A stretch of 64,000 nucleotides of DNA from Paucibacter sp. KCTC 42545 (GTDB taxonomy: Bacteria; Pseudomonadota; Gammaproteobacteria; Burkholderiales; Burkholderiaceae_C). Below are positions 34,860 through 61,165 of this stretch, one piece after another. The translations under genes and the position numbers were made by a program. Each line of letters begins with the position of its first letter. The first letter of the stretch is position 1. Where the stretch lies: assembly GCF_001477625.1 (NCBI RefSeq), contig NZ_CP013692.1, forward strand, positions 744,001 to 808,000, written 5' to 3'. Below the pieces are notes generated by a model. The model saw nothing but the letters and a program-made list of their open reading frames with translations. It ran no database searches and was not told the DNA's origin.

Positions 34860-34901
34860 AGCTTGCGCGCCGGTGCACATGATTTCTGTGCGACAGCGCA
34901 C
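34860..34901 (-). promoter_or_regulatory. Stress palindrome A with -10 for the BON gene
   Basis: GTGCG-ACAG-CGCAC (34888-34901), perfect 5-bp arms; its reverse complement reads GTGCGCTGTCGCACAGAA. A weak -10 hexamer CAAGCT occupies 34865-34860 on the minus strand, the same offset (29.5 bp from the palindrome centre) as in the stronger copies. Confidence 0.6.
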
Positions 34902-34932
34902 CTTGAAGCGCCAATGAACTGATGTCGCGCGC

Positions 34933-34974
34933 GTGCGCTGTCGCACAGAAGGCCGCGCTGGGCTTGCTTAGGCT
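34933..34974 (+). promoter_or_regulatory. Stress palindrome B with -10 for the 55-aa gene
   Basis: GTGCG-CTGT-CGCAC (34933-34946), perfect arms, followed by CACAGAAGG. TAGGCT at 34969-34974 is the -10 hexamer; its first T lies 29.5 bp from the palindrome centre, placing the palindrome at -41.5. Site A is 45 bp to the left and faces the BON gene. Confidence 0.75.
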
Positions 34975-35035
34975 GTGCGTTCCCATGCTGACGTCATTGC
35001 GGACGCCGGTGCCCACGTTTTGATAGGAGCTCCTG

Positions 35036-35203
35036 ATGAACAAGAAGTACCAAAGCCCCTGGATGGCGCCCGTGCCTGGGCGGCCGACTAAGCCCGCGCA
35101 AAACAAGCCCGCAGCCAAGTCACCCCTCGCGCCGACCGAGCCCAATGAAGTGCTGGGCCGGCACAAGAACACGGGCCAAAAAGATCACAAGGGGGCGCAA
35201 TGA
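35036..35203 (+). CDS. Small basic protein, 55 aa
   Basis: ATG 35036 has a perfect AGGAG. The protein starts MNKKYQSPWMAPVPGRPTKP, is rich in Lys, Pro and Ala, and ends TGQKDHKGAQ; it looks disordered. It has no recognisable family. The stop codon overlaps the ATG of the next gene (ATGA), so both are translated from one message, and palindrome B plus a -10 hexamer lie in front. The good ribosome binding site and coupling support a real gene. Confidence 0.65.
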   Translation: MNKKYQSPWMAPVPGRPTKPAQNKPAAKSPLAPTEPNEVLGRHKNTGQKDHKGAQ

Positions 35204-35730
35204 GCCGCGCCGGCCTTGCCGCATTTGCGCCCTCATTCACCTACCCGCCACCGTCTGAACTTGAAGTGCCCAGCGGCCGCGGCTTCATCGCCTTGCTGGA
35301 GGCCTTCCGGGCGACGGGGGGCACGGCACCGGCTGATGTGTTGGCGCGCTTGCTGGAGGAATATCAGCTCGGCCGTGCCTGCAGCCTTACCCAACTTGTT
35401 CAACTCGTCCAACTCGTTCATACCGGCCAAGTCTTCGGCTTTGAATGGCGCAGCAGTTTGTGGATACCGATGTTTCAGTTTGAGGCGCAGGACTTGGCCT
35501 TGAAGGCGGAGGCGCAAGAGGTGCGTGCCGCCTTGCCGCAGCTGTGGTCGGGCTGGGCGGTGGCGGCTTGGTTCGCTGGGGCTAACGCGCATCTAGCTCA
35601 GTGCCGGCCGGTCGATATGTTGGCGTCGGATTTTGAGGCGGTGCGGCGGGCCGCCAGCGCCGTGCAATCGGTCGGCGGCTTTAACCCTGTGCATGGGCGC
35701 AGGGCTGAGGGCCTCGGCCTGCGCGGGTGA
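35200..35730 (+). CDS. Hypothetical protein with DUF2384-like C-terminus
   Basis: 176 aa. It has no signal peptide. The first half is alpha-helical (GFIALLEAFRATGG, ADVLARLLEEYQL). Residues about 129-155, WFAGANAHLAQCRPVDMLASDFEAVRRAAS, resemble the antitoxin/toxin-binding DUF2384 (MbcA/ParS/Xre) signature of W---N--L-G--P-D-L followed by a helix. That likeness is by eye and moderate. The gene overlaps the 55-aa gene upstream by ATGA and follows palindrome B. Confidence 0.6.
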   Translation: MSRAGLAAFAPSFTYPPPSELEVPSGRGFIALLEAFRATGGTAPADVLARLLEEYQLGRACSLTQLVQLVQLVHTGQVFGFEWRSSLWIPMFQFEAQDLALKAEAQEVRAALPQLWSGWAVAAWFAGANAHLAQCRPVDMLASDFEAVRRAASAVQSVGGFNPVHGRRAEGLGLRG

Positions 35731-35995
35731 ATTCGCCCCGCTTAAACCAAGTCGTTCATTGGGGCTTGACCCACGCTGCGGTGCGCGCTCAGTTCACCGC
35801 CATGTGCGCTGCCGAACAGACGGCCTGTTCATCGCCTTCTAAAACTGCGTCATCGTCACAACTCGCCGACATGGCCGGTTGGCTGCAGCAGCGGAGGACT
35901 TGCATCATGCCCCTGAACCTTGATGGCCCTGGCGAACTTGCCGGCCTGGCGACGCCGCGCCGCAACGCCGGTCGGCCGCGCCGGTGAGGCTGCAC
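35731..35995. other. 265-bp gap before the efflux operon
   Basis: A plus-strand frame (35727-35987) exists but has no ribosome binding site and no recognisable sequence. No promoter stands out. Confidence 0.35.
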
Positions 35996-37459
35996 ATGGG
36001 CATCGCGCCAGGCGCGACTTTGGCGTGCCGCTTCGCCGGCCTGGGCTTGCTCGGCAGCTTGGCGGCCTGTGCGTCGCTGGCGCCAAGCGAGCAAGCGCCG
36101 CTGGCCAAGCTCGATATGCCCGTCGCTTGGTCAAGGGGCACTGCGGCGGCATCAGCGGCAGCAGGCGGCTCCGCCGTCAGCACCGCTTCGCTCTTGGCTT
36201 GGTGGCAGCGCTTTGATGATGCGCAACTGGATGCCTTGGAAGGCCAAGCCCTGCAGGCCAACACCACGGTGCAGGGCGCGCGTGCCGCGCTGGGTCAGGC
36301 GCGGGCCTTGCGCGATCTTGCCGCTGCCGCCTTGTGGCCGAATTTGACGGCCCAAGCCTCCGCGCAGCGTGGCACGGTGGGCGGCCGCAGCAGTGGCAAC
36401 AACTTTCAGCTCGGTGCCGATGCCAGCTGGGCACTGGACTTGTTTGGCGCGCGGCGTGCCGCCTTGGAAGCGGGCGAAGCCGGCCTCGCGGCCAGCCAGG
36501 CCAGCCTGGGCGATGTGCAGGTGCAAATCGCGGCGGAAGTGGCGCTGAACTACATCTTGCTGCGAACCAGCCAGGTGCGCAGCCTCATCGCGGCCGAGAA
36601 CCTGGCCAGCCAGGAGGAAACGCTGCAGATCACGCTGTGGCGCCAGCAAGCGGGCTTGGTCACCGCGCTGGAGGCCGAGCAGGCGCGCGCCGCCGTCGAG
36701 CAAAGCCGCGCGCTGCTTCCCCTGCTGCAAACCAGCAGCGGGCAGACGCTGCATGCGCTGGCGGTGCTGACGGGGCGGCCGCCGGCGGCCCTGTTGGAGA
36801 TGGCCGAGCTTGGCGCTGTGAGTTCGGCGCTCAAGGTCCCGCAAGCGCGCGAGGCGCTAACCTTGAACATCCCCGCCGAGACCTTGCGCCAACGTGCCGA
36901 TGTGCGCGCGGCCGAATACCAAGTGGCCGCGGCCCTGGCCCGCGAGGCACAGGCCCAGGCGCAACGCTATCCCAGCTTTGCCATTGGCGGTTCTTTGGGC
37001 TGGAGTGCTGCCACGGTCGGCGCGCTGGGCAATAGCAATGCGGTGCTGGGCAGCTTGCTGGCCAGTGTGAGCTTGCCGCTTTTCGATGGCGGCGCCCTGA
37101 GCGCGCAGCTGCGTGTGCAGCAGGCGGCTTTGACTCAGGCGCAGTTGCTGTATCGCGCGGCAGTGCTTGCCGCTTTGCAGCAAGTGGAAGACGCGCTGCT
37201 GGCGCTGCAGGGCGCGCGCCTGCGCCTGGCCAGCCTGCGCTTGGCGGCCGACGCCGCCAGCAGCGCCGCTCAGCTGGCCCGCCAGCGCTACAGCAGCGGC
37301 CTGATCGATTTTCAAACCGTGCTCGAAACCCAGCGCACCCAGTTCGCCACCCAGGACGGCGTGGCCAGCGCCAGTGCCGAAGTGGGTAGCGACCAGGTGC
37401 GCTTATTCAAAGCATTAGGCGGCGGTTGGTCGCCCGCAGTGGAAGCACCCAACAGATGA
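35996..37459 (+). CDS. NodT-family RND/MacAB outer membrane lipoprotein
   Basis: 487 aa from ATG 35996 (GAGG eight bases upstream; a GTG at 35984 is in frame). Signal peptide with lipobox LAAC (GLLGSLAACASL). It has the duplicated TolC-like architecture of the NodT family: WWQRFDDAQLDALEGQALQAN near 65-85, LGADASWALDLFGARRAALEAGEAG, and second-half QRYSSGLIDFQTVLETQRTQF. It forms the outer membrane exit duct for the adjacent MacA/MacB-type pump; its stop overlaps the next start by ATGA. Confidence 0.93.
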   Translation: MGIAPGATLACRFAGLGLLGSLAACASLAPSEQAPLAKLDMPVAWSRGTAAASAAAGGSAVSTASLLAWWQRFDDAQLDALEGQALQANTTVQGARAALGQARALRDLAAAALWPNLTAQASAQRGTVGGRSSGNNFQLGADASWALDLFGARRAALEAGEAGLAASQASLGDVQVQIAAEVALNYILLRTSQVRSLIAAENLASQEETLQITLWRQQAGLVTALEAEQARAAVEQSRALLPLLQTSSGQTLHALAVLTGRPPAALLEMAELGAVSSALKVPQAREALTLNIPAETLRQRADVRAAEYQVAAALAREAQAQAQRYPSFAIGGSLGWSAATVGALGNSNAVLGSLLASVSLPLFDGGALSAQLRVQQAALTQAQLLYRAAVLAALQQVEDALLALQGARLRLASLRLAADAASSAAQLARQRYSSGLIDFQTVLETQRTQFATQDGVASASAEVGSDQVRLFKALGGGWSPAVEAPNR

Positions 37460-38928
37460 ACTTAGCGATCCCGCCCCCGGCTCCAGTGGTAGTTCCCGTG
37501 CCCGTGCCTGCGCCCGAAGTTGCCGCCGCCACTCCAACCGAGCCCCAAGCTGCCGCCAAACCTGAGGCAAAGGCTGAGGCAAAGGCTGAAGCCAAACCCG
37601 CAGCAGCAACAAGCACGGCCACGCCCGGCGCCGATCTGTCTGAACTGTTGGGCGAGCCGGCTGCGCGGCCTTGGTACCTGCGGCGCTGGCTGTGGGGCTT
37701 GCTCGCCGCCGTGTTGCTAGCCGCGGCTGGCCTTGCCTGGTGGTGGGCGGGGCGGGCGGCCAAGGCGGAGCCGGGCTACACCACGGTGGTGGTGGGGCGG
37801 GGCGATCTCACGCTGACCGTCACCGCCAATGGCACGGTGCAGCCCACGCGCTCCATCAATATTGGCAGTGAGCTGTCGGGCACGGTCTTGAAGGTCAATG
37901 TCGACGTCAATGACAGCATCAAAAAAGGCCAGGTGCTGGTGGTGCTGGACACCGCCAAGCTGCGCGGCCAGATCCTGCGCTCACAAGCCACTTTGGCTGC
38001 CGCCCACGCCCGGCATGCGCAGACCGGGGCCACCGTGGCCGAAGCCCGCGCCGCTTTAGGCCGGCTAGAGGAAGTGGCGCGCCTGTCCGGCGGCAAGGTG
38101 CCGTCCAAGGCCGAGCTGGATAGCGGCCGCGCCACCCTGGCCCGCGCTGTGGCCGATGACGGCAGCGCGCAGGCCGGCATCAGCGATGCGCTGGCTGCAC
38201 TCTCCACCGACCAGATCAACCTCTCCAAAGCCTCGATCACCGCGCCCGCCGATGGCGTGGTGCTGACCCGCGCGGTCGACCCCGGCAACACGGTTGCCGC
38301 CTCGCTGCAGGCAGTCACGCTGTTCACCGTGGCCGAGGATCTGGCCCGGCTGCGCCTCTGGGTTTATGTGGACGAGGCCGATGTGGGGGCGGTCAAGGTT
38401 GGGCAGGCGGCCACCTTCACCGTGAGCGCCTATCTGAGCCGGCCCTTCCCGGCGCGCATCACGCGGGTGGGTTTTGGCTCGACCATCACCGACAACGTCG
38501 TCACCTATCTGACCTACCTCGATGTGGACAACGCCGACCTCAGCCTGCGCCCGGGCATGACGGCCACCGCCATCATCGTGGCCACCCAGCGCAAAGACGT
38601 GCTGCTGGTGCCCAATGCCGCCTTGCGTTACGCGCCCAGTACGGCCGCGGCCGCCGCTAAGAAGGGCATTGCCTCAGGCATTGCCTTCGGCCCGCCCAAG
38701 ACCGAGAGTAGGCGCCGCGGCGCGGCGGATGGCGCCAGCACGGCCGCGGCACGCCAGGTCTGGGTCTTGCCCGCTGACTCAAACGGCGTAGCCATCAGCG
38801 GCGCGGTGCCCAAGGCGGTGGCCGTGGTGCCTGGCATCAGCGACGGCCATATGACCGAGATCGTCAGCGGCGCGCTCAGCGCCGGCATGCGGGTCATCAC
38901 CGCCCAGCAAACAGCGGGTGCCAAATGA
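37456..38928 (+). CDS. MacA-like periplasmic adaptor (membrane fusion protein)
   Basis: 490 aa from ATG 37456, overlapping the upstream stop. A proline/alanine-rich cytoplasmic head with an EAKAEAKAEAKPAA repeat precedes a single TM helix (WLWGLLAAVLLAAAGLAWWW, near 79-98). The adaptor core follows: lipoyl/barrel-sandwich half motifs TVQPTRSINIGSELSGTVLKV and ASITAPADGVVLTRAVDPG, an alpha-hairpin of about 90 residues, and a beta-barrel (TFTVSAYLSRPFPARITRVGF). The long N-terminal head is unusual for MacA. It connects the MacB pump to the outer membrane lipoprotein. Confidence 0.92.
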   Translation: MNLAIPPPAPVVVPVPVPAPEVAAATPTEPQAAAKPEAKAEAKAEAKPAAATSTATPGADLSELLGEPAARPWYLRRWLWGLLAAVLLAAAGLAWWWAGRAAKAEPGYTTVVVGRGDLTLTVTANGTVQPTRSINIGSELSGTVLKVNVDVNDSIKKGQVLVVLDTAKLRGQILRSQATLAAAHARHAQTGATVAEARAALGRLEEVARLSGGKVPSKAELDSGRATLARAVADDGSAQAGISDALAALSTDQINLSKASITAPADGVVLTRAVDPGNTVAASLQAVTLFTVAEDLARLRLWVYVDEADVGAVKVGQAATFTVSAYLSRPFPARITRVGFGSTITDNVVTYLTYLDVDNADLSLRPGMTATAIIVATQRKDVLLVPNAALRYAPSTAAAAAKKGIASGIAFGPPKTESRRRGAADGASTAAARQVWVLPADSNGVAISGAVPKAVAVVPGISDGHMTEIVSGALSAGMRVITAQQTAGAK

Positions 38929-39674
38929 GCACGCGCCTGATCGAGTTGCGCGGCGTGAGCAAACGCTATGGCAGCGGTGCGGCGGAGCTGCTGGCGCTCA
39001 AGGGCATCAACCTGGACATCGACGCCGGCGAATTCGTTGCCATCATGGGCCCCAGCGGCTCGGGTAAGTCTACCGCCATGAACATCCTGGGCTGCCTGGA
39101 TACGCCCAGCAGCGGTCAGTATCTGTTCCGCGGCGCGCATGTCGAAGCGCTGTCGCGCGACCAGCGTGCGCGCTTGCGGCGGCGCTACCTGGGCTTTGTG
39201 TTCCAGGGCTTCAATCTGCTGGCGCGTACCTCGGCGCAAGAGAATGTGGAGTTGCCGCTGCTGTACCGGGGCGACGGTGCGGCGGCGCGCCGCAGCGCGG
39301 CCGCCAAGGCCTTGGCCGATGTGGGCTTGGCCGGCTGGGAGCAGCACACGCCGGGCGAGCTCTCGGGCGGCCAGCAGCAGCGGGTGGCGATTGCCCGCGC
39401 CATCGTCACCCAGCCCGCCGTGGTGCTGGCCGACGAGCCCACCGGCAATCTGGACACCCTGCGCAGCCACGAGATCATGGGCCTGCTGATGGCGCTGAAC
39501 CGTGACCACGGCATCACCGTGCTGATGGTGACGCATGAGCCCGATATGGCCGCGTACGCGCGGCGCATGGTGCATTTCGTTGATGGCCGCATCGCCAAGG
39601 ATGTGCTCAACCCCAATCCGACCACGGCCGCGCCGGTGATGGACGGCATTGAGAGCAGTGTGGAGAGCATCTGA
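38925..39674 (+). CDS. MacB-type ABC transporter ATP-binding protein
   Basis: 249 aa. Walker A GPSGSGKST near 43-51, Q-loop FVFQGFNLL, signature LSGGQQQR, Walker B VVLADEPTGNLD and the H-loop MVTHEPD are all intact. It belongs to the MacB/LolD/FtsE group. In classical MacB the ATPase and permease are one chain; here they are separate genes with overlapping stop and start codons on both sides. Confidence 0.95.
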   Translation: MSTRLIELRGVSKRYGSGAAELLALKGINLDIDAGEFVAIMGPSGSGKSTAMNILGCLDTPSSGQYLFRGAHVEALSRDQRARLRRRYLGFVFQGFNLLARTSAQENVELPLLYRGDGAAARRSAAAKALADVGLAGWEQHTPGELSGGQQQRVAIARAIVTQPAVVLADEPTGNLDTLRSHEIMGLLMALNRDHGITVLMVTHEPDMAAYARRMVHFVDGRIAKDVLNPNPTTAAPVMDGIESSVESI

Positions 39675-40888
39675 TGCTGTTCAGCGTCTTCATGCTGGCG
39701 CTGCGCTCGGTGAGGCGCAATATGCTGCGCTCATTTCTTACCATTCTGGGCATCGTCATCGGCGTCAGCGCCGTCATCACCATGGTGACCTTGGGCAATG
39801 GCGCTACGCAGGCGATTGAAGAAAAGATCACCAGCTTGGGCACCAATTTGCTGATGGTCAGCCCGGGCCAGCGCATCGGTGGCGGCGGGGGCGGCGGCGG
39901 TGTGCCGCAGTTCATTGAGGCCGATGGTGAGGCCATCGCCGCGCAGATCGGCGGCGTGGCTGCGGTGGCACCCCAGGGCCGCGCCACCGCCACCGTGGTG
40001 GCTAATGGGCGCAACTGGGCCACCACGGTGGTGGGCAGCAGCAATGCCTGGTTCGAGACCGGCAATTGGGAGCTTGCCAGCGGCCGGCTGTTCGCGCCCG
40101 ATGAGCAGCTCTCGGGTGCGGCCGTGTGCATCATCGGCGAGACGGTGCGGCGCGAACTCTGGGGCGGCAGCGTGGGGCAGACCGGCCTGGGCCAGCAGTT
40201 GCGGGTCAAGCATTTCTCCTGCGAGGTGATCGCCATCCTGGCGGCCAAGGGGCAGGGCAGCATGGGGGATCAAGACGACACTGTGCTGCTGCCGCTGCAC
40301 ACGCTGCAGCGGCGGGTCACCGGCAGCCGCAAGGTGGGCGTTTTGCTGGTGTCCATGCAAGACGGCAGTGACAGCGCGCCGCTCAAAGCCAGCCTGCGTC
40401 AGCTGCTACGCGAGCGCCGCCACCTGGCCGAGAGCGATGACGACAACTTCAATATCTTCGACACCCAGCAACTCGCCGAAACCTTGTCCAGCACCATGGG
40501 CGTGCTGACCAGCTTGCTTGGCGCGGTGGCGGCGGTCAGCCTGCTGGTGGGCGGCATTGGCATCATGAACATCATGCTGGTCAGCGTCACTGAGCGCACC
40601 CACGAGATCGGCCTGCGCCTAGCCGTGGGCGCGCTGGAGAGCGAGGTGCTGCTGCAGTTCCTGATCGAGGCGGTGGTGCTGTCGGCTCTGGGCGGCGTGA
40701 TCGGCATCGTCATTGCCACGGCGGCGTCTTATGCGCTGTCGGGTGTGATGGGCGTGCCCTACACATTCGATCCGGCCATCAATCTGCTGTCCCTGTTGTT
40801 CTCCGCGGTGATTGGCGTGGTGTTCGGCTACTTCCCGGCCCGCCGCGCGGCGCGCATGGACCCGATTGAGGCGCTGCGGCATGAGTAG
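39674..40888 (+). CDS. MacB-type ABC transporter permease
   Basis: 404 aa. TM1 lies near 21-43 (LTILGIVIGVSAVITMVTLG), then the large periplasmic MacB domain (about 50-270), and three C-terminal helices of the FtsX module (LLGAVAAVSLLVGGIGIMNIMLVSVTERTHEIGLR, a signature of MacB permeases). A run of eight glycines near 72-79 lies in the periplasmic domain. It couples ATP hydrolysis to extrusion of substrates from the periplasm (macrolides, peptides, or virulence factors in relatives). Starts within the stop codon of the ATPase gene. Confidence 0.94.
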   Translation: MLFSVFMLALRSVRRNMLRSFLTILGIVIGVSAVITMVTLGNGATQAIEEKITSLGTNLLMVSPGQRIGGGGGGGGVPQFIEADGEAIAAQIGGVAAVAPQGRATATVVANGRNWATTVVGSSNAWFETGNWELASGRLFAPDEQLSGAAVCIIGETVRRELWGGSVGQTGLGQQLRVKHFSCEVIAILAAKGQGSMGDQDDTVLLPLHTLQRRVTGSRKVGVLLVSMQDGSDSAPLKASLRQLLRERRHLAESDDDNFNIFDTQQLAETLSSTMGVLTSLLGAVAAVSLLVGGIGIMNIMLVSVTERTHEIGLRLAVGALESEVLLQFLIEAVVLSALGGVIGIVIATAASYALSGVMGVPYTFDPAINLLSLLFSAVIGVVFGYFPARRAARMDPIEALRHE

Positions 40889-40940
40889 CTGGCACAAGCG
40901 TTCGGCCTGGCTAACTAGAAATTTGATGGGGGTTTGAGTC

Positions 40941-41648: not shown

Positions 41649-41699
41649 TCGTTGGCGATGGCATTGAAGCGACCATGCCCTTGTGCGGCGCCTGTGCGT

Positions 41700-42359: not shown

Positions 42360-42370
42360 CGCATCCGTCC

Positions 42371-42679: not shown

Positions 42680-42876
42680 GCCGCCACCGGCGAATAGCCG
42701 GCCCGCTTGATCGCATCGCTCAGCTGCCGCGCTGTGGCGTGGCTGGGCTCGATCTCGACCGTGAAAGTGGCCAGATCCACCCGCACCAAGGCGGAATGAT
42801 CGGCCTCTTTGAGTGCCTTGGTGATGGCGCCGGCACAACGCGAACAACTCATATCGCTGACTTGAAACGCAATCAT
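42676..42876 (-). CDS. Heavy-metal-associated (HMA) domain protein
   Basis: 66 aa, one HMA ferredoxin-like fold. The metal motif is MSCSRC (MxCxxC) at residues 9-14, and the pattern ends IKRAGYSPV as in copper chaperones of the CopZ type. It should bind Cu(I) or Zn(II) in the cytoplasm. No P-type ATPase is adjacent, so its partner must be elsewhere or it acts with the coupled 102-aa protein. Confidence 0.9.
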   Translation of the reverse strand: MIAFQVSDMSCSRCAGAITKALKEADHSALVRVDLATFTVEIEPSHATARQLSDAIKRAGYSPVAA

Positions 42877-52159: not shown

Positions 52160-52166
52160 GCCCGCC

Positions 52167-52405: not shown

Positions 52406-52645
52406 TTAGTTCTGTACGGCGGAAGCCGGTGGCGTGACGACAATCACCGCGGCGCCGCCCTGTGCGCCACTGGCGCCTTGGGGCCCAGTCATGCCTGTGG
52501 CGCCGGTGCTGCCGGTGGCGCCGGTCGGGCCGGCTGGGCCAGGTACCGGCGTGGCCGGCGGCGGCACATTGACGACGGTGGGCTTGTCGCAGGCCGCAAG
52601 GCCCAGGGACAGCATGAGTGCAGCTAGCAATACAAAGTTCTTCAT
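52406..52645 (-). CDS. Collagen-like lipoprotein, 79 aa
   Basis: Signal peptide with lipobox LAAC (LMLSLGLAACDKP). Residues about 36-65 are ten Gly-X-Y triplets (GPAGPTGATGSTGATGMTG and on), a short collagen-like repeat, then VIVVTPPASAVQN. A lipidated collagen-like rod on the cell surface or in the periplasm is expected. The promoter carries palindrome F with an exact -10 hexamer, so it belongs to the inferred stress regulon. It may be co-transcribed with DUF3309 (80-bp gap). Confidence 0.82.
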   Translation of the reverse strand: MKNFVLLAALMLSLGLAACDKPTVVNVPPPATPVPGPAGPTGATGSTGATGMTGPQGASGAQGGAAVIVVTPPASAVQN

Positions 52646-52689: not shown

Positions 52690-52731
52690 AGACTAGGGCG
52701 GCAGCGCCGCGGCTTCCGTGCGTTAGCGAAC
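52690..52731 (-). promoter_or_regulatory. Stress palindrome F with -10 for the collagen-like lipoprotein
   Basis: GTGCG-TTAG-CGAAC (52718-52731; one mismatch in the right arm). TAGTCT at 52695-52690 (minus strand) is the -10 hexamer; first T to palindrome centre is 29.5 bp. Predicted start about 38 nt before the ATG. Confidence 0.75.
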
Positions 52732-54481: not shown

Positions 54482-54510
54482 GAGGCGGGGCAGCCTTTTC
54501 TTTCTGCGCT

Positions 54511-54984
54511 TCAGTTCATCAAGGTTTCAGCGCGCGGCGTGGTGCCGTAGTAGGCGTGGATGCCGGCGGCCCATTCGGGGTCGGCCATATCGGGCCATTG
54601 GTCCTTGTCAAAGCCGGGGGCGCTTTCCAGCCGTGTCTTGTCGATGCTGACGGTGAAGCGCTTGTTGACGGTATCCAGCTTGAGTGCGCTCCAGGGCACG
54701 GCAAAGAGCTTCTCGCCCATGCTGAGGAAGCCGCCAAAGGACAGCACGGCGTAGCTGATGCGGCCGCTGCTGACGTCCAGCATGATTTCCTTGATTTCGC
54801 CCAGATCGTCACCGTCTTGATTGCTGACGTCGTTGCCGATCAGGGTGTTGGCTCCCATCAGCCGTGGGCCGGGGCCTTGATGCGTTGGGGTGTAAAGGCT
54901 GCCATTACCCTGGCTGTTGAGATCGGTACCCGTGCCGTTATTGACGCGGTACATGCCGTAGGGGTCGCGTTCTTCGTAGTTCAT
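54511..54984 (-). CDS. PRC-barrel domain protein
   Basis: 157 aa from ATG 54984; GGAG is six bases upstream (an in-frame TTG at 54996 would overlap it). The PRC-barrel is at about 43-115: LIGNDVSNQDGDDLGEIKEIMLD, GRISYAVLSFGGFLSMGEKLFAVPW. The C-terminal ends WAAGIHAYYGTTPRAE. PRC-barrel proteins of this kind are cytoplasmic and often stress-linked. The promoter carries palindrome C with an exact -10 hexamer. Confidence 0.9.
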   Translation of the reverse strand: MNYEERDPYGMYRVNNGTGTDLNSQGNGSLYTPTHQGPGPRLMGANTLIGNDVSNQDGDDLGEIKEIMLDVSSGRISYAVLSFGGFLSMGEKLFAVPWSALKLDTVNKRFTVSIDKTRLESAPGFDKDQWPDMADPEWAAGIHAYYGTTPRAETLMN

Positions 54985-55057
54985 CTGCTGCTCCAAGTGG
55001 ATGACTCATTGGCAAGTGGATGCGCGCGCTGCAATGAGGAAGCAGCGCCGCACCCAT

Positions 55058-55099
55058 AAGCTAAGGACTGAGGCTGCTTTCGGCTGTGCGTTCGCGCAC
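55058..55099 (-). promoter_or_regulatory. Stress palindrome C with -10 for the PRC-barrel gene
   Basis: GTGCG-TTCG-CGCAC (55086-55099), perfect arms in TGTGCG...CGCACA. TAGCTT at 55063-55058 (minus strand) lies at the standard 29.5-bp offset. Predicted start about 67 nt before the ATG. Confidence 0.78.
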
Positions 55100-55129
55100 A
55101 GAGCGGGGCGGCAAGCGGCCAGCGTGCAT

Positions 55130-55172
55130 GTGCGCCAGCGCACGGACAAGCGGATTTGGCCGCTCGCAAGAT
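55130..55172 (+). promoter_or_regulatory. Stress palindrome D, facing the 83-aa gene
   Basis: GTGCG-CCAG-CGCAC (55130-55143), perfect arms; the reverse complement is GTGCGCTGGCGCACA. It is 44 bp from palindrome C, the same layout as A and B. A weak -10 candidate CAAGAT is at 55167-55172, one base further than the standard offset. Confidence 0.6.
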
Positions 55173-55225
55173 GCCAGCCACTGAACCGCATCGGTGCAGT
55201 GCCCCATCCAGCCAGCGGAGCCGCC

Positions 55226-55477
55226 ATGAGCAGACCAGCGCAGATCACCGGAACAGTCGAATACCGCGAAGGCGAGGGCGCACAGATGACGATTCGCAAA
55301 GGCCGCTGCGAGGTTGAGGAGTCAGCGCAGGATGTGACGCTGAGTTGGAGCGAGGCGGATGGCGAGGAGCAGGGCGAGGGTGTGATGCATGGCTCCGCCG
55401 CAATCCCGCTGGCCGTCTACAAAAGCTACGTCGCCAGCCGGGCGATTGAGTTGCTTGATGAAGAGAGTTCAGCATGA
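55226..55477 (+). CDS. Hypothetical protein, 83 aa
   Basis: ATG 55226 has GCGGAG upstream. The product is small and acidic: ITGTVEYREGEGAQMTIRKG, VEESAQDVTLSWSEADGEEQG, then AAIPLAVYKSYVASRAIELL. It has no signal or TM segment and no family I recognise. The stop overlaps the start of the flavodoxin-fold gene (ATGA). It is divergent from the PRC-barrel gene over a region with two palindromes (C and D). Confidence 0.7.
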   Translation: MSRPAQITGTVEYREGEGAQMTIRKGRCEVEESAQDVTLSWSEADGEEQGEGVMHGSAAIPLAVYKSYVASRAIELLDEESSA

Positions 55478-56544
55478 GCACCATCCGTACCGGTCAAGCG
55501 CCAGCGCCCCTGACGCGTGCGGAGTTCAGCACCCGCTTCAAGGCGCGCTTCTACGACCCAGCTTTCGAGGCGGAAGGGCCTGCCATCGAACGTTTGGAGG
55601 CCATTGCCTGGACGGCCTTGCAGCAAGGCCGCAAAGCGCCGCTCACTCGGCCGGCCGGGCGCGGCTTTGCCGACCCGAGCTACGAGGTGTCGGTACAGTG
55701 GCTGGACACCCATCAGCGCCTGAAGGCCGCGCAAAGGCGCTGGAGCGACAGCAAGGTCCCCTCCCGTGTGCTGGTGATTTGCGGCAGTGCACGCAATGAC
55801 GGTACTTGCCCGGGCGAAGTGTCCAAGACCTGGCGCTTGAGCGGCTTGGTTCGAGAGGTGATCGAGCAAGCGGGCCTGCAAGCCGATTTGCTGGATCTGA
55901 GTCTGGTGACCTCGGAATACGGCCGCAAGATCCACCCCTGCAAGGCTTGCGTATCGACCGCGATGCCGCTGTGTCACTGGCCCTGCAGCTGCTATCCGAA
56001 TCATGCGCTGGATCAGACCAATGATTGGATGGCCGAAATTTATGAGCGCTGGGTCGCCGCGCATGCGGTGATCATCCTGGCGCCGACTTATTGGTATCAG
56101 TCGCCCAGCCCACTCAAGCTGATGATGGACCGCATGGTCTCGGCCGATGGGGGCAACCCCGATCCGACGACGACCCACGGCAAGCATGTGGCCGAGGCCA
56201 AGCTGATCGAAGAGCAGGGCTGGGACTACCCCAAACACCTGGCCGGCCGGGCTTATGGCGTGATCGTGCACGGCGATGTGGCCGGTGCCGAAGCACACCG
56301 GCGCACGCTCTGTGATTGGCTGGAGTGGATGGGCCTGATCGACGCCGGTGCTGCCGCCAAACTAGATCGTTACATCGGCTACTACGAGCCCTACTTCAAC
56401 AGCCACGAAGCCCTCGACCGTGACTTAGCCGTGCAAGAGGAAGCCCGCAACACCGCGCGCGCCGTGGTTCAGGCCGTGTTGCAAGTGCGCTTGGGGCAGT
56501 TGAGCCAGCCCGATCAGCAAGTCAAGGCGCCGCGCCCGAAGTAA
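55474..56544 (+). CDS. NAD(P)H-dependent FMN reductase (flavodoxin-fold)
   Basis: 356 aa. A leader of about 85 residues precedes the flavodoxin-like reductase domain: VLVICGSARNDGTCPGEVSK near 91-110 (phosphate-binding loop), VIILAPTYWYQSPSPLKLMMDRM near 196-218, with HPCKACVSTAMPLCHWPCSC holding five cysteines. A C-terminal extension with GYYEPYFNSHEALDRD ends the protein. It resembles the multimeric flavodoxin WrbA/iron-sulfur flavoprotein group; the cysteine cluster suggests a redox or metal role. It is translated together with the 83-aa gene. Confidence 0.85.
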   Translation: MSTIRTGQAPAPLTRAEFSTRFKARFYDPAFEAEGPAIERLEAIAWTALQQGRKAPLTRPAGRGFADPSYEVSVQWLDTHQRLKAAQRRWSDSKVPSRVLVICGSARNDGTCPGEVSKTWRLSGLVREVIEQAGLQADLLDLSLVTSEYGRKIHPCKACVSTAMPLCHWPCSCYPNHALDQTNDWMAEIYERWVAAHAVIILAPTYWYQSPSPLKLMMDRMVSADGGNPDPTTTHGKHVAEAKLIEEQGWDYPKHLAGRAYGVIVHGDVAGAEAHRRTLCDWLEWMGLIDAGAAAKLDRYIGYYEPYFNSHEALDRDLAVQEEARNTARAVVQAVLQVRLGQLSQPDQQVKAPRPK

Positions 56545-56602
56545 GCGTGCGCAGCCAAGTCCGTGGCCGGCCGCGCCTGAGCGGCCACCCTGCGGCCCAG
56601 CG

Positions 56603-56749
56603 TCATGCCTGCGGTTCGCCTTCGTGCTCGGGCTCACTTGGGATCTGGCTTGGGTCAGCCCCAGAGTCCGGCTCCACCGGCAGCGCGCCGGGTTCAAATT
56701 CTGCCGGCACATCGGTATGGGGATGAGGGTGTTTGTGGGCTTGAGCCAT
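56603..56749 (-). CDS. Small acidic/His-rich protein, 48 aa
   Basis: Runs from ATG 56749 to TGA at 56603-56605. It starts MAQAHKHPHPHTDVPAEFEP and continues GALPVEPDSGADPSQIPSEPEH. A short protein with a DVP-EF-PG-LPVEPD core is, from memory, widespread in Burkholderiales as an uncharacterised small protein. It has no ribosome binding site that I can point to, and no domain; it is probably disordered. Confidence 0.55.
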   Translation of the reverse strand: MAQAHKHPHPHTDVPAEFEPGALPVEPDSGADPSQIPSEPEHEGEPQA

Positions 56750-56820
56750 ATTCGTTCATGCGTCCAGGTGAGAGTGCCAGGGCAAGCCTTGCAGTGTGGG
56801 GGCGGCAGCACCGCAGGTCT

Positions 56821-56862
56821 GTGCGCTGGACAACAGACAGCAACGTTCCCGGCCGCGAGCAT
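56821..56862 (+). promoter_or_regulatory. Degenerate stress palindrome H before the CBS gene
   Basis: GTGCGCTGG with a poor right arm (ACAAC) followed by CAGACAG; a similar right flank is seen in copy G. At the standard offset stands GAGCAT (56857-56862), which keeps only A2 and T6 of the -10. Weaker than the others. Confidence 0.4.
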
Positions 56863-56918
56863 GGGAGCAGACAAAGAACGCCCCTGCCACCGCTTTGAGT
56901 TTGATGAAGGGATTCACC

Positions 56919-57428
56919 ATGGCTGACACCGTTACCGATAACCACACCGATAGTGGCAGCACAAAGACCGGCCGCGCCCCGCCATCCCCGGTCAGTGCGA
57001 TTGAGGCGGTCGCCCGCTCGCGGCTGCTGACCGTGGCGGCGGACACCCACTTGGTCGAGGTGGCCGCCCTGCTCGCGAATGCGCAGATCAGCGTGGTGGT
57101 GGTCTGTGACGCGCAAGGGGAAGTCTTAGGCCTGATCACCGAGACCATGCTGGTCAGGCAGCTGGGCCTGGGGGAAGCCGACTTCTTCAGCACCCGGGCC
57201 GACGCGGTGATGACGCGGGAAATCAAGTCCTGCACGCTGCAAGACCTGCTGACTGAGGTGGTGGCTGAGATGCACCAGCAGGGCTTGATCCACATGCTGC
57301 TGCTCGATACCGACAACAAGCCGCTGGGCGTTTTGAATCTGCGTGACGGCCTGCGCGCGCTGCTCTTGGCGGGTAATTTCGAGGAGGAATTGTTGCGCAA
57401 CTATGTGATGGGCATTGGCTATCAGTAG
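56919..57428 (+). CDS. CBS-domain pair protein
   Basis: 169 aa from ATG 56919 (GAAGGG upstream). Two CBS motifs are visible: SRLLTVAADTHLVEVAALLANAQISVVVVCDAQGEVLGLITETML (about 34-78) and the second with CTLQDLLTEVVAEMHQQGLIHMLLLDTDNKPLGVLNLRD (about 107-147). Bateman modules bind adenosine nucleotides (AMP, ATP, SAM). There is no other domain. It is a free-standing CBS protein of the kind found in stress clusters; regulation by palindrome H is possible. Confidence 0.9.
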   Translation: MADTVTDNHTDSGSTKTGRAPPSPVSAIEAVARSRLLTVAADTHLVEVAALLANAQISVVVVCDAQGEVLGLITETMLVRQLGLGEADFFSTRADAVMTREIKSCTLQDLLTEVVAEMHQQGLIHMLLLDTDNKPLGVLNLRDGLRALLLAGNFEEELLRNYVMGIGYQ

Positions 57429-57472
57429 CCCCTGGTGAGAGCTTGGCCTCACCTTGCACCTTGCTCCACCAA

Positions 57473-58900
57473 CTAGGCCTGCGGCCCCAGCATCAGGCGA
57501 GGATCGACCCAGGCGTCAAACTCCTCGGCGCTGAGCGCGCCAAGTGCCAGTGCTGCGTCGCGCAGTGTTGAGCCGCTGGCTTGGGCCTGCTTGGCGATGG
57601 CGGCTGCGCGGTCGTAGCCGATATGCGGCACCAGCGCGGTCACCAGCATCAGCGAAGATTCCAGCAAGGCCTGGATGCGCTCGGGCGCGGCCCGCAGGCC
57701 CAGCAAGCAGTGCTGCTGGAAGCTGCGCATGGCCTGGCTGAGCAAGTGCAGGCTGTCCAGGCAATCCAGAATGATCAGTGGCTTGTAGGTGTTGAGCTCG
57801 AACAGGCCTTGCGAGGCCGCGAAGCCGATGGCTGCGTCATGGCCGATGACTTGCGCGCAGATCATGGTCAGCGCCTCGATCTGCGTCGGGTTGACCTTGC
57901 CCGGCATGATGGAGCTGCCCGCCTCATTGGCCGGCAATTGCAGCTCACCCAGGCCGGCGCGTGGGCCGCTGCCCATCAGGCGGATGTCGCAGGCGATCTT
58001 GTTCAGGGCGATGGCCAGCATCTTCAAGCCAGCATGCAAGCCCACCAAGGCTTCGTGGCCGGCCGTCGCGGCAAAGAGATTGCTGGCCTGGCGCAGCGGC
58101 AAGTCCAGCGCCTGCGCCAGCATGGCGGCCACGCGCTTGCCGAACTCCGGGTGGGTGTTCAGGCCGGTGCCCACCGCCGTGCCGCCAATCGCCAAGGTGT
58201 GTACCGCTCGCAAGGCATAACGCAGATGCTCCTCGCACAGGCGCAGCTGCGCTGCATAGCCGCTGAATTCCTGGCCCAGGGTCAGCGGCGTGGCGTCCTG
58301 GCCATGGGTGCGGCCGATCTTAATGATGGCGGCCCATTCAGTCGCCTTGGCCGTCAGCGCCTGCTGCAAGTCGCCGAGCGCCGGCAGCAGGCTTTGCTTG
58401 GCCTGCAGGGCCACGGCGAGGTGCATGGCGCTGGGGAAAACGTCGTTGCTGCTTTGTCCGAGATTGACCTGGTCATTGGGGTGGATCGAGCGCTGCTCGC
58501 CCAAGGCGCCGCCGAGCGCTTGCGAGGCCAGATTGGCGATCACTTCGTTGACATTCATATGGCTTTGCGTGCCCGAGCCGGTCTGCCAGACCGAGAGCGG
58601 GAATTGCCCGTCATGCGCGCCCGCCGCCACCTCGCGCGCCGCTGCCGCGATGGCCTCGGCCTCGGCGCCGTCCAGCAGGCCCAGATCCCGGTTCACCAGC
58701 GCCGCCGCCCATTTGAACCAGGCCAGCGCGTGGATCTGGCTCAAGGGCATGATTTGCTGCTGACCCTCGTGCTGGCCGATCTTGAAGAACTGCAAGCTGC
58801 GCGCGGTCTGCGCGCCCCAGAGGGCGTCCAGGGGCAACTCCAGCGTGCCAAAGCCATCGGTCTCGCTGCGAGTGCTGGCCATGGCCGGTGGGGGTTTCAT
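57473..58900 (-). CDS. fumC: Class II fumarate hydratase
   Basis: 475 aa from ATG 58900, overlapping the stop of the regulator gene (ATGA); ATG 58882 is an alternative. The fumarase/aspartase signature GSSIMPGKVNP is near 324-334, and the conserved TGSGTQSHMNVNEV near 105-118 and the HTHGQDATPLTLGQE variant (GRTHGQDATPLTLGQEFSG) are present. FumC is the iron-independent, oxygen-stable isoenzyme of the citric acid cycle, commonly induced in oxidative stress. Co-translation with an Fnr-family regulator is noteworthy. Confidence 0.95.
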   Translation of the reverse strand: MKPPPAMASTRSETDGFGTLELPLDALWGAQTARSLQFFKIGQHEGQQQIMPLSQIHALAWFKWAAALVNRDLGLLDGAEAEAIAAAAREVAAGAHDGQFPLSVWQTGSGTQSHMNVNEVIANLASQALGGALGEQRSIHPNDQVNLGQSSNDVFPSAMHLAVALQAKQSLLPALGDLQQALTAKATEWAAIIKIGRTHGQDATPLTLGQEFSGYAAQLRLCEEHLRYALRAVHTLAIGGTAVGTGLNTHPEFGKRVAAMLAQALDLPLRQASNLFAATAGHEALVGLHAGLKMLAIALNKIACDIRLMGSGPRAGLGELQLPANEAGSSIMPGKVNPTQIEALTMICAQVIGHDAAIGFAASQGLFELNTYKPLIILDCLDSLHLLSQAMRSFQQHCLLGLRAAPERIQALLESSLMLVTALVPHIGYDRAAAIAKQAQASGSTLRDAALALGALSAEEFDAWVDPRLMLGPQA

Positions 58901-59784
58901 TGCAGGGTCGCGCCGGGCGCTCGAACCTGGGGCTGCGCGTGAGCTTGGGCTTCGACCTGAATGAAGTCGCTCAAGGCCTGCAGGTCGGGGATTTGAATCA
59001 TGCGGCGGCCGCGCTCTGAGAAGCAGATCACCTGCGCCCGCGCCAGGCTAGAGAACGCACGGCTGACCGACTCCAGCGTCATGCCCAGGTAGTTGCCGAT
59101 CTCGGCGCGCGACATGCGCAAGATGATCTGGTCATTGCGCAGGCCGCGCGCGGCCAGGGATGCGGCCGACTGGCGCAAAAACTCCGCCACCCGCGCCGTG
59201 ACCGGCAGGGTGCAGACCGAGAGCATCGCATCCCGCCCGCGGCTGATGGCGCGGCTCATCTCCGCATGCAGCACCTGCAGCAACTGGGGCTGGGCGCTGG
59301 CTGCGTCCATCAGCGCGTCATAACGCAAGCTCCAGATCTCGCCAATCTCCAGGGCTTGTGCGCTGCAGCCGTAGCGGCCTTTGGCAATGCCGTCAAAACC
59401 CAGCCAGTCACCCCGGAGCAGGAGCCCAACGACTTGGTTGCGCCCGTCCGCCGCGGTGTTGACCAGCTTGACGCTGCCCGAATTGAGCACATAGAGCTGC
59501 TTGAACGGAACGCCCGCTTCAAAGATCAGGTCGCCGGCATGCACCAGGCGGCGCCGCAGTGGCAAATGCTCTTGCAGCAAGCTCAGTGAGCGGGCGATCC
59601 GGTCGGCGCCAGGGCTTGTTCCGGCGCTGGTGCCGCGATGGTTGGCTGCTGCGCTGCGGCGCCCGCCATCCGCTGCGTCGGCGGCATTCAAGGCATTCAA
59701 GGCCTTCGGTGGCTGCGGATGCCCGGCCAGGGCGGTAAGCCGGGGCGGGCGGTCTTCAGATATGTCCTGCTGGGCTTTGTACAC
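58897..59784 (-). CDS. Crp/Fnr-family transcriptional regulator (no Fe-S ligands)
   Basis: 295 aa from GTG 59784. A disordered head of about 65 residues precedes the effector domain (LRRRLVHAGDLIFEAGVPFKQLYVLNSGSVKLV, GDWLGFDGIAKGRYGCSAQ), and a C-terminal winged helix has MSRAEIGNYLGMTLESVSRAFSSLARAQVI. The effector fold resembles Fnr (GFDAIGSG...), yet the N-terminal cysteine cluster is absent and the position of Fnr Cys122 appears to be Trp. It overlaps fumC. Palindrome E stands at -41.5 before it, so autoregulation is likely. It is the nearest candidate to bind the palindrome family. Confidence 0.9.
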   Translation of the reverse strand: MYKAQQDISEDRPPRLTALAGHPQPPKALNALNAADAADGGRRSAAANHRGTSAGTSPGADRIARSLSLLQEHLPLRRRLVHAGDLIFEAGVPFKQLYVLNSGSVKLVNTAADGRNQVVGLLLRGDWLGFDGIAKGRYGCSAQALEIGEIWSLRYDALMDAASAQPQLLQVLHAEMSRAISRGRDAMLSVCTLPVTARVAEFLRQSAASLAARGLRNDQIILRMSRAEIGNYLGMTLESVSRAFSSLARAQVICFSERGRRMIQIPDLQALSDFIQVEAQAHAQPQVRAPGATLQ

Positions 59785-59809
59785 GGCGACTCCCCTGGGC
59801 TAGATGTTC

Positions 59810-59851
59810 AGGCTAAGACCCTAGGGCGGCGCTGTATGTGCGCTGCGCAAC
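59810..59851 (-). promoter_or_regulatory. Stress palindrome E with -10 for the Crp/Fnr regulator
   Basis: GTGCG-CTGC-GCAAC (59838-59851); left arm intact, right arm shifted, followed by ACAGCGGCG as in copy F. TAGCCT at 59815-59810 (minus strand) lies 29.5 bp from the centre. Predicted start about 19 nt before the GTG. A CCTAG stands between. This suggests the regulator controls itself and fumC. Confidence 0.68.
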
Positions 59852-59889
59852 ACAGCGGCGTGCCATAGCGCGGTTCAGCTCAGCTCAGC

Positions 59890-60810
59890 TCAGTCGTCTG
59901 GAAAAACCGGGAGCTTCAAGGCAGGGCTTGCCGGGCCCGGCAGGCGCTCAAACTCCGCGATCGCTTGCGCGCCCAGCAGCAGCAAGCTGGCCGCCAGCTC
60001 CAGGTTCAGCAGCACGGCGATGGCCGTGGTCAGCGAGCCGTAGACCAGGCCGATCTGCGCCAGGCTGCTGAAGTACCAAGCCAGCAGGCGGCGTGAGATC
60101 TCCCACAGGCTGGTCGCAAACACCGCACCGAACAAGGCATGCTTGAGCGGCAGGCGCCCGGCCGGCATCACCATGTAAATTGACGTTAGCACCGCCACCT
60201 CGCCAGCCAGGCCCAGCAAATACAGCAAGGCGCTGGAGGGCCGGCCCAGCGACCAGTCGCGGCCCAGCAGTTCAATCTCGTCCTGCCCCAGGGCCAGCAA
60301 GCTGCCGGTCATCAAGGTCACCAGCAAAAGCCCCAGACCGAGGCAGAGGATGAAGGCGTAGGGGATCAGCGCGGAGATCAACCAGCGCCGGCCCCGCTTG
60401 CGGCCCCGCTGCAGCAAGGCCAGTCGGTGGCGGAAGATCACCGCCATGGCGCTCTCCAGCACGGTGAAGGCCAGGGAGCTGGAAAACAGCATGGTCAGCG
60501 CCAAGGTCCAGCCAATGACCTGGCGGTGCGCCAAAAACAGCACCAACTCAGCCACCAGCGCCGGCGCCTGCCCCGGCAGCAGCCAATCGAGGTAGCGCCG
60601 TAAAGTCTGCAGCAACTCGGCCTCAGGCGTCAGGTGCGACAAGGCGATCAGGATCAGGATCAACATGGGCACGATGGACAGCAGCGCGTAATAAGCCACC
60701 GCGCCCGCCAGCAGCAGGCCCTGATTGCGCTGAAAGTTGCGCAGCACGCGCAGGCTGAAGGCCGCGGGATGCGCCAGCAGCAGGCGCAAGCGTGGGTCGA
60801 TGAGGGGCAT
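59890..60810 (-). CDS. YihY/BrkB-family membrane protein
   Basis: 306 aa with six hydrophobic helices. The opening AFSLRVLRNFQRNQGLLLAGAVAYYALLSIVPMLILILIAL and the later GSLTTAIAVLLNLELAASLLLLGAQAIAEFE match the YihY/virulence factor BrkB family (formerly RNase BN). Role probably in envelope or transport; unknown. The gene lies 33 bp after the DUF3185 gene on the same strand and likely shares its promoter. The stop codon sits inside four tandem TCAGC-like units. Confidence 0.9.
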   Translation of the reverse strand: MPLIDPRLRLLLAHPAAFSLRVLRNFQRNQGLLLAGAVAYYALLSIVPMLILILIALSHLTPEAELLQTLRRYLDWLLPGQAPALVAELVLFLAHRQVIGWTLALTMLFSSSLAFTVLESAMAVIFRHRLALLQRGRKRGRRWLISALIPYAFILCLGLGLLLVTLMTGSLLALGQDEIELLGRDWSLGRPSSALLYLLGLAGEVAVLTSIYMVMPAGRLPLKHALFGAVFATSLWEISRRLLAWYFSSLAQIGLVYGSLTTAIAVLLNLELAASLLLLGAQAIAEFERLPGPASPALKLPVFPDD

Positions 60811-60843
60811 GAACGCCGCCTTGAGGCTGCTGCCGCCCGCGCC

Positions 60844-61065
60844 TCAGCGCCTCGCCCCCCACAGCAGCAGCGCGCCGCCCAGCACCAGGGCGCCCAAGCC
60901 GACCCAGATCGGCACATTGACAACATGGGTTTCATCCACTGTCACGGCCACCGGCCCCAGCTTGATCGCTTGACTGCGCTCGGTATAGCTGAATCCGCCG
61001 TAAGCCAGGGCCATGAGGCCGGCCACGATCAGGGCCAATGCCATGACTTTGATTGCATTCATCAC
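60844..61065 (-). CDS. DUF3185 small membrane protein
   Basis: 73 aa. Two TM helices, residues 8-27 (MALALIVAGLMALAYGGFSY) and 52-70 (IWVGLGALVLGGALLLWG), separated by a beta-like stretch LGPVAVTVDETHVVNVP. This is the DUF3185 pattern. Small inner membrane protein, unknown role. Its promoter (copy G, minus direction) has a TAGCCT at the exact offset, about 24 nt before the start. Confidence 0.88.
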   Translation of the reverse strand: MMNAIKVMALALIVAGLMALAYGGFSYTERSQAIKLGPVAVTVDETHVVNVPIWVGLGALVLGGALLLWGARR

Positions 61066-61095
61066 TGCCGCCTTGCCAAAGAGTTGTGGTGTCTC

Positions 61096-61165
61096 AGGCT
61101 ATGCGGCGAAAGTGCAGTCGTCCGTGCGCTGGCAGACAGACACAGCGAATAGCGCGGCATAGGGT
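61096..61165. promoter_or_regulatory. Stress palindrome G with two divergent -10 elements
   Basis: A single degenerate palindrome GTGCG-CTGG-CAGAC (61124-61137) lies midway in the gap. On the plus side TAGGGT (61160-61165) and on the minus side TAGCCT (61101-61096) are both exactly 29.5 bp from its centre, giving symmetric promoters for the glycine-zipper gene and DUF3185. The symmetry is the strongest single piece of evidence for the spacing rule. Confidence 0.72.

What the first reader, a model, noticed from the sequence alone, without database searches (positions are those of the whole stretch)
34860..61165. Repeated palindrome GTGCGCTGNCGCACA at -41.5: a candidate Crp/Fnr-type stress regulon
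Seen: sites at 34888 (A), 34933 (B), 52718 (F), 55086 (C), 55130 (D), 56821 (H), 59838 (E) and 61124 (G) share GTGCG-N4-CGCAC. A, B, C and D have perfect 5-bp arms. For B, C, E, F and both sides of G, a hexamer TAGNNT (TAGGCT, TAGCTT, TAGCCT, TAGTCT, TAGGGT, TAGCCT) begins exactly 29.5 bp from the palindrome centre. Established: CRP/FNR class II activators sit at -41.5, and TGTG(AT)N4(AT)CACA is the CRP pattern with two bases exchanged here. Inference: one Crp/Fnr-family activator controls BON, PRC-barrel, collagen-like lipoprotein, DUF3185/YihY, OsmB-like, its own gene with fumC, and perhaps CBS. I do not know of a described regulon with this motif.
Basis: partly seen in the sequence, partly recalled or inferred. 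Interest (0 to 1): 0.88.

Follow-up and report, generated by a model that had tools for sequence, protein, structure and literature searches.

The report
Crp-type stress regulon, regulator misassigned
The repeated DNA palindrome looks like a real switch site placed at a fixed distance from the promoters of many cell-envelope and stress genes, but the protein whose presence best matches it across genomes is a different Crp-like regulator just outside the window, not the one first suspected.

Summary
In 124 kb of own chromosome a weight matrix trained only on other genomes gives 19 strand-wise hits at 14 places, all intergenic, none in the 89% called coding. The full site is about GTCTGTGCG-N4-CGCACAGAC, recurs at orthologous promoters and fits class II (about -41.5) activation by a Crp/Fnr-family protein.

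The named regulator (58897-59784) is probably a target: it is FNR-like and missing from 4 of the 9 genus genomes that carry the promoters. A better candidate lies 14 kb right of the window: CRPa (genome 822119-822835), present in exactly those 9 of 18 genomes. Across 399 family genomes, 53 of 164 with CRPa-type proteins have at least two sites, against 1 of 235 without; within-genus label shuffling reached the observed value 0 of 20,000 times. CRPa keeps CRP's Arg180 and Glu181 but has Glu at Arg185, which could suit a GTGCG half-site. Targets include PRC-barrel, BON, DUF3309, glycine-zipper, Dps-like and DnaJ proteins and the FNR-like/fumC unit. Binding and activation are inferred.

The parts
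34888..34901 (-). site A, perfect palindrome, oriented to the BON gene 34179-34829; hexamer at the -10 spacing is CAAGCT (poor)
   Evidence: 25.7 bits with matrix trained on other genomes; palindrome at the same place in G009, G001, G008, also there without TANNNT
34933..34974 (+). site B (34933-34946) plus -10-like TAGGCT (34969-34974), oriented to the small ORF 35036-35203
   Evidence: 31.3 bits; orthologous promoter keeps site and TACGCT in G009, G001
35804..35817 (+). additional weaker site before the gene 35996-37459 (efflux outer-membrane type by eye), hexamer TAAAAC
   Evidence: 16.2 bits; 17.0 bits in G009, G001
52690..52731 (-). site F (52718-52731) plus -10-like TAGTCT (52690-52695), before the collagen-like lipoprotein gene 52406-52645
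   Evidence: 34.3 bits; conserved in G009, G001, G007
55058..55099 (-). site C (55086-55099) plus -10-like TAGCTT (55058-55063), before the PRC-barrel gene 54511-54984
   Evidence: 29.2 bits; conserved in G009, G008, G007, G002; not found within the range searched in G001
55130..55143 (.). site D, perfect palindrome 44 bp from C, before ORF 55286-55477 and the FMN-reductase-like gene; no TANNNT at class II spacing
   Evidence: 10.7/9.2 bits; palindrome before the ortholog in G009, G001, G008, G007, none with TANNNT
56821..56834 (.). site H, imperfect palindrome before the CBS-domain gene 56904-57428; no TANNNT at 29.5
   Evidence: 15.8 bits, oriented away from CBS; GTGCGCTG-N3-AACAGAC kept in G008, G007, G002
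59810..59851 (-). site E (59838-59851) plus -10-like TAGCCT (59810-59815), before the FNR-like gene and fumC
   Evidence: 20.0 bits; site and TAGNCT kept in L016 (same contig as G009) and L017 (same contig as G007), and in G001, G008
61096..61165 (.). site G (61124-61137) with a -10-like hexamer on each side (TAGCCT 61096-61101, TAGGGT 61160-61165): possible bidirectional promoter for DUF3185/YihY and the OsmB-like gene
   Evidence: 20.9 and 20.5 bits; both directions kept in G009 and G007
34179..34829 (-). target: protein with three BON domains
   Evidence: PF04972 3.6e-42, 3 stretches
52406..52645 (-). target: small lipoprotein with collagen-like repeat
   Evidence: PF01391 4e-4, below curated cut-off
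54511..54984 (-). target: PRC-barrel protein
   Evidence: PF05239 1.6e-16
58897..59784 (-). target, not the likely regulator: FNR-like Crp-family protein
   Evidence: PF00027, PF13545; FNR-type recognition helix
57473..58900 (-). target (probably same unit): fumarase C
   Evidence: PF00206 2.8e-98; directly follows the FNR-like gene
   Evidence: PF03631 1.6e-33; the small one has only a weak DUF202 match below cut-off
61206..61445 (+). target: glycine-zipper, OsmB-like lipoprotein
   Evidence: PF13488 0.004, weak, below cut-off

Best explanation
The palindromes are operators of a Crp/Fnr-superfamily dimer that sits about 41.5 bp before the start of transcription (class II), over the -35 region, and activates promoters with TANNNT -10 boxes. 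The dimer is most likely CRPa, a 239-aa Crp-like protein encoded at genome 822119-822835 (14 kb right of the window), next to one or two tandem paralogs. CRPa switches on envelope and general-stress genes and, as one target, the FNR-like/fumC unit in the window, so the FNR-like protein is a second tier. In two relatives the CRPa gene has a class II site of its own. Shown by sequence: the site, its spacing, its recurrence at orthologous promoters, its restriction to intergenic DNA, and its co-occurrence and adjacency with CRPa. Inferred: binding, activation, and that Glu at CRP position 185 accounts for GTGCG in place of GTGAT. Not known: the signal.
For: (1) 19 of 19 strand-wise matrix hits (14 places) intergenic, matrix trained without own-genome sites. 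(2) TANNNT 22 times at 29.5 bp, 9 times at 30 other offsets together. (3) Composite promoter in genus: 41 sites (control 2) in the 9 genomes with CRPa, 0 (control 2) in the 9 without; relaxed form 53 (control 8) against 1 (control 5). (4) Family: 225 sites (control 46) in 164 genomes with a CRPa-type protein, 20 (control 58) in 235 without; at least 2 sites in 53 of 164 against 1 of 235, P 3.6e-22. (5) In 46 genera that hold both kinds: 141 sites (control 27) in 105 genomes with CRPa-type, 10 (control 22) in 103 without; within-genus shuffles reached 141 in 0 of 20,000. (6) 15 of 150 listed composite sites lie within 500 bp of a listed CRPa-type gene, in 13 genomes. (7) In G010 and G005 the CRPa gene has a class II site of its own (31.1 and 20.6 bits). 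(8) R183, E184 and E188 of CRPa align with the recognition-helix positions of two solved Crp/Fnr proteins; all three are invariant in 22 of 22 aligned close homologs (77-90% identical). The CRP base contacts Arg180, Glu181, Arg185 are from PMC12531629, section 7.
Against: No binding, transcription-start or expression data. 111 of 164 genomes with CRPa-type proteins have fewer than 2 composite sites, and 69 of 164 have none, so the strict pattern misses much, or the E <= 1e-40 cut takes in paralogs of other specificity. In the own genome the palindrome nearest the CRPa gene (79038 in window numbering) has no TANNNT at the class II spacing in either direction. Co-occurrence could arise if CRPa and its targets travel together and another factor binds. 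The invariance was seen among close homologs only. The structure model was too poor to use (pLDDT 47).
Confidence: 0.82

Rival explanations
1. The FNR-like protein of the window (58897-59784) is the regulator and controls its own gene.
For: It has the motif upstream, kept in relatives; within the genus the 5 genomes that have it carry the most composite sites (7, 6, 6, 7, 5); weak family association (22 of 84 against 32 of 315 with at least 2 sites, P 5e-4).
Against: 4 genus genomes with the promoters have only 35-37% identical hits. The family association is carried by genomes that also have CRPa: with this type only, 37 genomes, 4 sites, 9 control. Its helix aligns with FNR (TLESVSR beside TVETISR), which from recalled FNR work predicts TTGAT-type boxes; such boxes are in excess around its more distant homologs.
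Confidence: 0.07
2. One of the tandem paralogs beside CRPa (the EGVTA type or the RVGVT type), alone or as a heterodimer, is the binder.
For: They lie in the same cluster and are related (43-60% identical); EGVTA keeps Arg-Glu.
Against: Each is found in only 6 of the 9 genus genomes with the promoters (assigned by me from the identities and the helices), CRPa in all 9.
Confidence: 0.07
3. An unrelated factor binds; CRPa and its targets merely travel together as a stress island.
For: In the own genome 6 of 10 relaxed composite sites lie within 50 kb of CRPa (places).
Against: Sites are spread over several contigs in other genomes, some lie next to CRPa genes, and a 5-4-5 palindrome centred at -41.5 is the Crp/Fnr geometry (recalled general knowledge).
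Confidence: 0.04

Closest known systems
E. coli CRP and its class II promoters
   Same: Crp-type domains, palindromic site at the class II distance, GTG in each half-site (CRP site recalled), Arg-Glu at the first two base-contact positions
   Different: Half-site GTGCG instead of GTGAT; Glu instead of Arg at position 185; marginal cNMP domain score (28.3 bits, cut-off 27.5); a different kind of target set
FNR and FNR-like regulators
   Same: 5-4-5 palindrome geometry (TTGAT-N4-ATCAA, recalled), class II activation; the window's own FNR-like protein resembles these
   Different: CRPa lacks the FNR recognition helix; TTGAT-N4-ATCAA is not among the 15 most enriched palindromes of the own 104 kb
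Solved Crp/Fnr proteins 3dv8 and 4cyd (the latter C. glutamicum GlxR by recall)
   Same: Two of the four solved sequences matched by CRPa, aligned through the recognition helix
   Different: Distant (E 1e-6 and 7e-5); Arg (3dv8) and Lys (4cyd) where CRPa has Glu188

Membership tests
Crp/Fnr superfamily (CRPa) | cNMP-binding-like domain plus Crp-type helix-turn-helix | tested here: met
   PF13545 2.9e-13; PF00027 28.3 bits against cut-off 27.5
Crp/Fnr superfamily (CRPa) | conserved base-contact residues (CRP Arg180, Glu181, Arg185) | tested here: inconclusive
   Arg and Glu kept, third is Glu; all three invariant in 22 of 22 close homologs
cAMP-dependent CRP (CRPa) | NCBIfam CRP family match | tested here: not met
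   no NCBIfam family matched at E <= 0.001
class II Crp-type promoter (sites) | palindrome centre fixed relative to the -10 box | tested here: met
class II Crp-type promoter (sites) | transcription start 41.5 bp from centre | not testable with these tools
   no transcript data
FNR regulon (sites) | TTGAT-N4-ATCAA boxes | tested here: not met
   sites are GTGCG-N4-CGCAC
FNR proteins (window 58897-59784) | recognition helix E-x-x-S-R | tested here: met
   TLESVSR aligned with TVETISR of a solved FNR-type regulator
FNR proteins (window 58897-59784) | NCBIfam FNR subfamily cut-off | tested here: not met
   113 bits, cut-off 228

The most novel reading that the evidence does not exclude
CRPa heads an undescribed envelope and general-stress regulon found across much of this Burkholderiales family. 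It has its own DNA code in the Crp superfamily (Arg-Glu-x3-Glu reading GTGCG), recurrent single-palindrome bidirectional class II promoters, and possibly a thiol- or metal-based sensor built on its four invariant cysteines.
Probability: 0.35. Interest if true: 0.75.

Novelty: new variant of a known kind. Interest (0 to 1): 0.6.

Why it matters
It links a widespread Crp-like protein type, for which I found no description, to a defined operator and to a coherent set of poorly understood envelope and stress genes. It gives a sharp prediction for how the Crp recognition helix can be re-coded. It also warns against naming the nearest Crp gene as the regulator: co-occurrence over many genomes picked a different one.

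Tried and rejected
Window FNR-like protein as the regulator: rejected on co-occurrence and helix. Plain palindrome TGTGCG-N4-CGCACA as a family-wide probe: too noisy without the -10 (159 of 399 genomes). Perfect sites around more distant homologs of the FNR-like protein: 10 in 80 loci against 6 for the reversed control, 3 of the 10 in the two closest relatives. RNA-element reading of the palindrome: Rfam at gathering thresholds found only a tRNA at 32897-32970. Structure of CRPa: mean pLDDT 46.9, not used; no fold search was made. A helix scan over CRPa loci mostly caught neighbouring paralogs and was redone. An earlier extraction of Crp proteins read minus-strand loci on the wrong strand and was redone. 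Papers: ten searches of the held open-access library; none of the listed papers describes this motif or protein by title and abstract start. Searches matched 51 and 285 papers and listed 20 and 30. Only PMC12531629 was opened (abstract, outline, three passages, section 7). The term 'crp fnr' probably cannot match the spelling with a slash, so those three are weak; most subscription papers are not held.
Full report
What is there. Four are perfect, F has one arm mismatch, E and G two, H three. At up to one mismatch the window holds no more than chance (10 found, 9.9 expected), so that count alone proves nothing. The perfect form does stand out: among all 5-bp-arm palindromes with gaps 0-8 it is the most over-represented in the 104 kb around the window (8 found, 0.26 expected, P 4e-10 before allowing for about 9,000 combinations; the stretch was chosen after seeing the genome hits). 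Of 28 perfect sites in the genome (18 for the reversed control), 8 lie within 98 kb. By my own codon-usage gene calls, 15 of the 20 others are inside genes.

Spacing. In stretches from five genomes, chosen because they held hits or the FNR-like gene, 26 of 27 perfect sites and 24 of 44 one-mismatch sites are intergenic. Around the 50 intergenic sites TANNNT starts 22 times at 29.5 bp from the centre and 9 times at the other 30 offsets together; around the 21 coding sites it occurs at none of the 31 offsets. Of the 10 one-mismatch sites with this hexamer, 9 have the mismatch in the arm away from the promoter (listing). In smaller sets also not selected on the -10 the count at 29.5 is 3 (28 own sites), 8 (20 genus sites) and 3 (31 family sites), against 5, 2 and 4 at all other offsets. 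Among 72 composite sites the flank after the promoter-side arm is A 65%, G 89%, A 78%, positions that were not selected for, so the full site is about GTCTGTGCG-N4-CGCACAGAC.

Independent test in the window. A weight matrix trained on 65 sites from other genomes gives 19 strand-wise hits above 9 bits, at 14 places, in 124 kb of own sequence: 19 intergenic (14,162 bp), 0 coding (109,838 bp). It recovers A to H and adds 35811 in the window and 65232, 75493, 75570, 79038 and 80475 to its right. At orthologous promoters the site with TANNNT recurs for the small ORF (G009, G001), the lipoprotein (G009, G001, G007), PRC-barrel (G009, G008, G007, G002), the FNR-like gene (G009, G001, G008), the DUF3185-like gene (G009, G001, G007), the OsmB-like gene (G009, G007) and the gene at 64653 (G009, G001, G008, G002); for BON the palindrome recurs (G009, G001, G008) without TANNNT, as in the own genome. 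These relatives contributed training sites, so this part shows position, not independent scoring. Misses: PRC in G001 had no site in the 260 bp searched (a composite site lies 260 bp from the next called gene on that contig at 77055); BON in G007 only 5.8 bits; the search start for the FNR-like gene in G007 was wrong, but its site was read directly in L017 and found as G007:C227:4136.

Which protein. The composite pattern GTKCG-N4-CGCAC-N22-TANNNT occurs in 9 of 18: 7, 6, 6, 7 and 5 in those five, and 4, 3, 2 and 1 in G010, G005, G002 and G011; control 4 in all 18. The four latter have only 35-37% identical hits, and no relative of the candidate lies in the stretches taken around their sites. 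In G000 and G010, Crp-family proteins were listed by PF13545. A pair lies inside the site cluster of each; one member (CRPa) is 78% identical between the two. Searching CRPa in the genus found it in exactly the same 9 genomes: 41 composite sites (control 2) with it, 0 (control 2) without. One-sided chance is 1 in 48,620 if genomes were independent, which they are not.

Family test. In 399 genomes (drawn evenly from a larger group) composite sites total 245, control 104. With a CRPa-type protein (E <= 1e-40, 164 genomes): 225 sites, control 46. Without (235): 20 sites, control 58. At least two sites: 53 of 164 against 1 of 235 (P 3.6e-22). Genomes with the window FNR-like type (E <= 1e-60) but no CRPa (37) have 4 sites, control 9. 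In the 46 genera that hold both kinds, 141 sites (control 27) fall in 105 genomes with CRPa-type and 10 (control 22) in 103 without; the genus mean is higher with CRPa in 31, lower in 4, equal in 11 (control: higher in 15, lower in 10); 0 of 20,000 within-genus shuffles reached 141. Of 150 listed composite sites 15 lie within 500 bp of a listed CRPa-type gene, in 13 genomes (both lists are partial). Against: 111 of the 164 genomes have fewer than two sites and 69 have none.

The regulator. CRPa has PF13545 and a marginal PF00027, no NCBIfam family and distant solved relatives. In 22 homologs that I picked from the 120 listed (77-90% identical to CRPa; at least 8,000 exist at E <= 1e-30) LIAxMLGVRREGVTE is invariant apart from x, and so are Cys142, 153, 219 and 221; among such close homologs invariance is only weak evidence. 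CRP's base contacts are Arg180, Glu181 and Arg185 (PMC12531629 section 7); the alignments put Glu188 where 3dv8 has Arg and 4cyd Lys. That this swap reads C in place of A in the fourth half-site position is my inference. In a tree of 63 rows CRPa-type proteins form one group (support 92/76) beside an EGVTA-type group and apart from RVGVT-type paralogs. In G010 and G005 CRPa has a class II site of its own; in the own genome the nearby palindrome lacks the hexamer.

Targets. From 66 distinct composite sites in loci L186-L265, 10 were inside called genes, 12 had no called gene within 250 bp, and 44 gave a downstream protein. With the window PRC protein added (one gene thus counted twice) 45 were scanned: 7 PRC-barrel, 4 DUF3309, 2 BON, 2 glycine-zipper 2TM, 1 DnaJ, 1 ferritin-type (Dps by eye), 1 FeeM, 1 cation ATPase, 1 Crp-like, and others such as 2 NAD-binding and 2 PEP-CTERM (38 families, first 25 shown). 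I read this as an envelope and general-stress set.

Bidirectional use. Site G has a hexamer at 29.5 bp on both sides, kept in G009 and G007. In the listing 6 palindromes (G330, G275, G066, G181, G139, G220) appear on both strands 28 bp apart, that is, one palindrome with two class II arrangements.

Verdict. The motif, spacing and regulon are right; the regulator is most likely CRPa outside the window, with the FNR-like/fumC unit as one of its targets. All binding and activation statements are inferences from sequence.

Noticed in passing
L097:13353-14835 (genome 821353-822835): Tandem Crp-like paralogs: CRPa (EGVTE helix) followed by an EGVTA-type copy; in some other genomes an RVGVT-type copy as well.
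   Followed up: partly
window 61096-61165; G007 C227:1746-1815: Single palindrome with a TANNNT at 29.5 bp on each side, so one dimer site could serve two divergent class II promoters; 6 further cases in the listing.
   Followed up: partly
L018-L095 (loci of distant FNR-like homologs): Strong excess of FNR-type boxes: TTGAT-N4-ATCAA 32 against 0.45 expected and TTGAC-N4-GTCAA 25 against 0.43.
   Followed up: no
CRPa, residues 142, 153, 219, 221: Four cysteines invariant in 22 of 22 close homologs; possible sensor site.
   Followed up: no
L225 about 9837; L226 about 9555 and 9616 (genome 3783837, 4273555, 4273616): Own-genome composite sites far from the cluster; downstream proteins look like a P-type cation ATPase and a GDSL-type lipase.
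   Followed up: partly
L097:11653-12465: N-acyl amino acid synthase (FeeM-like) gene with two weak sites upstream (75493 and 75570 in window numbering).
   Followed up: no
window 32897-32970: tRNA gene found by Rfam.
   Followed up: no
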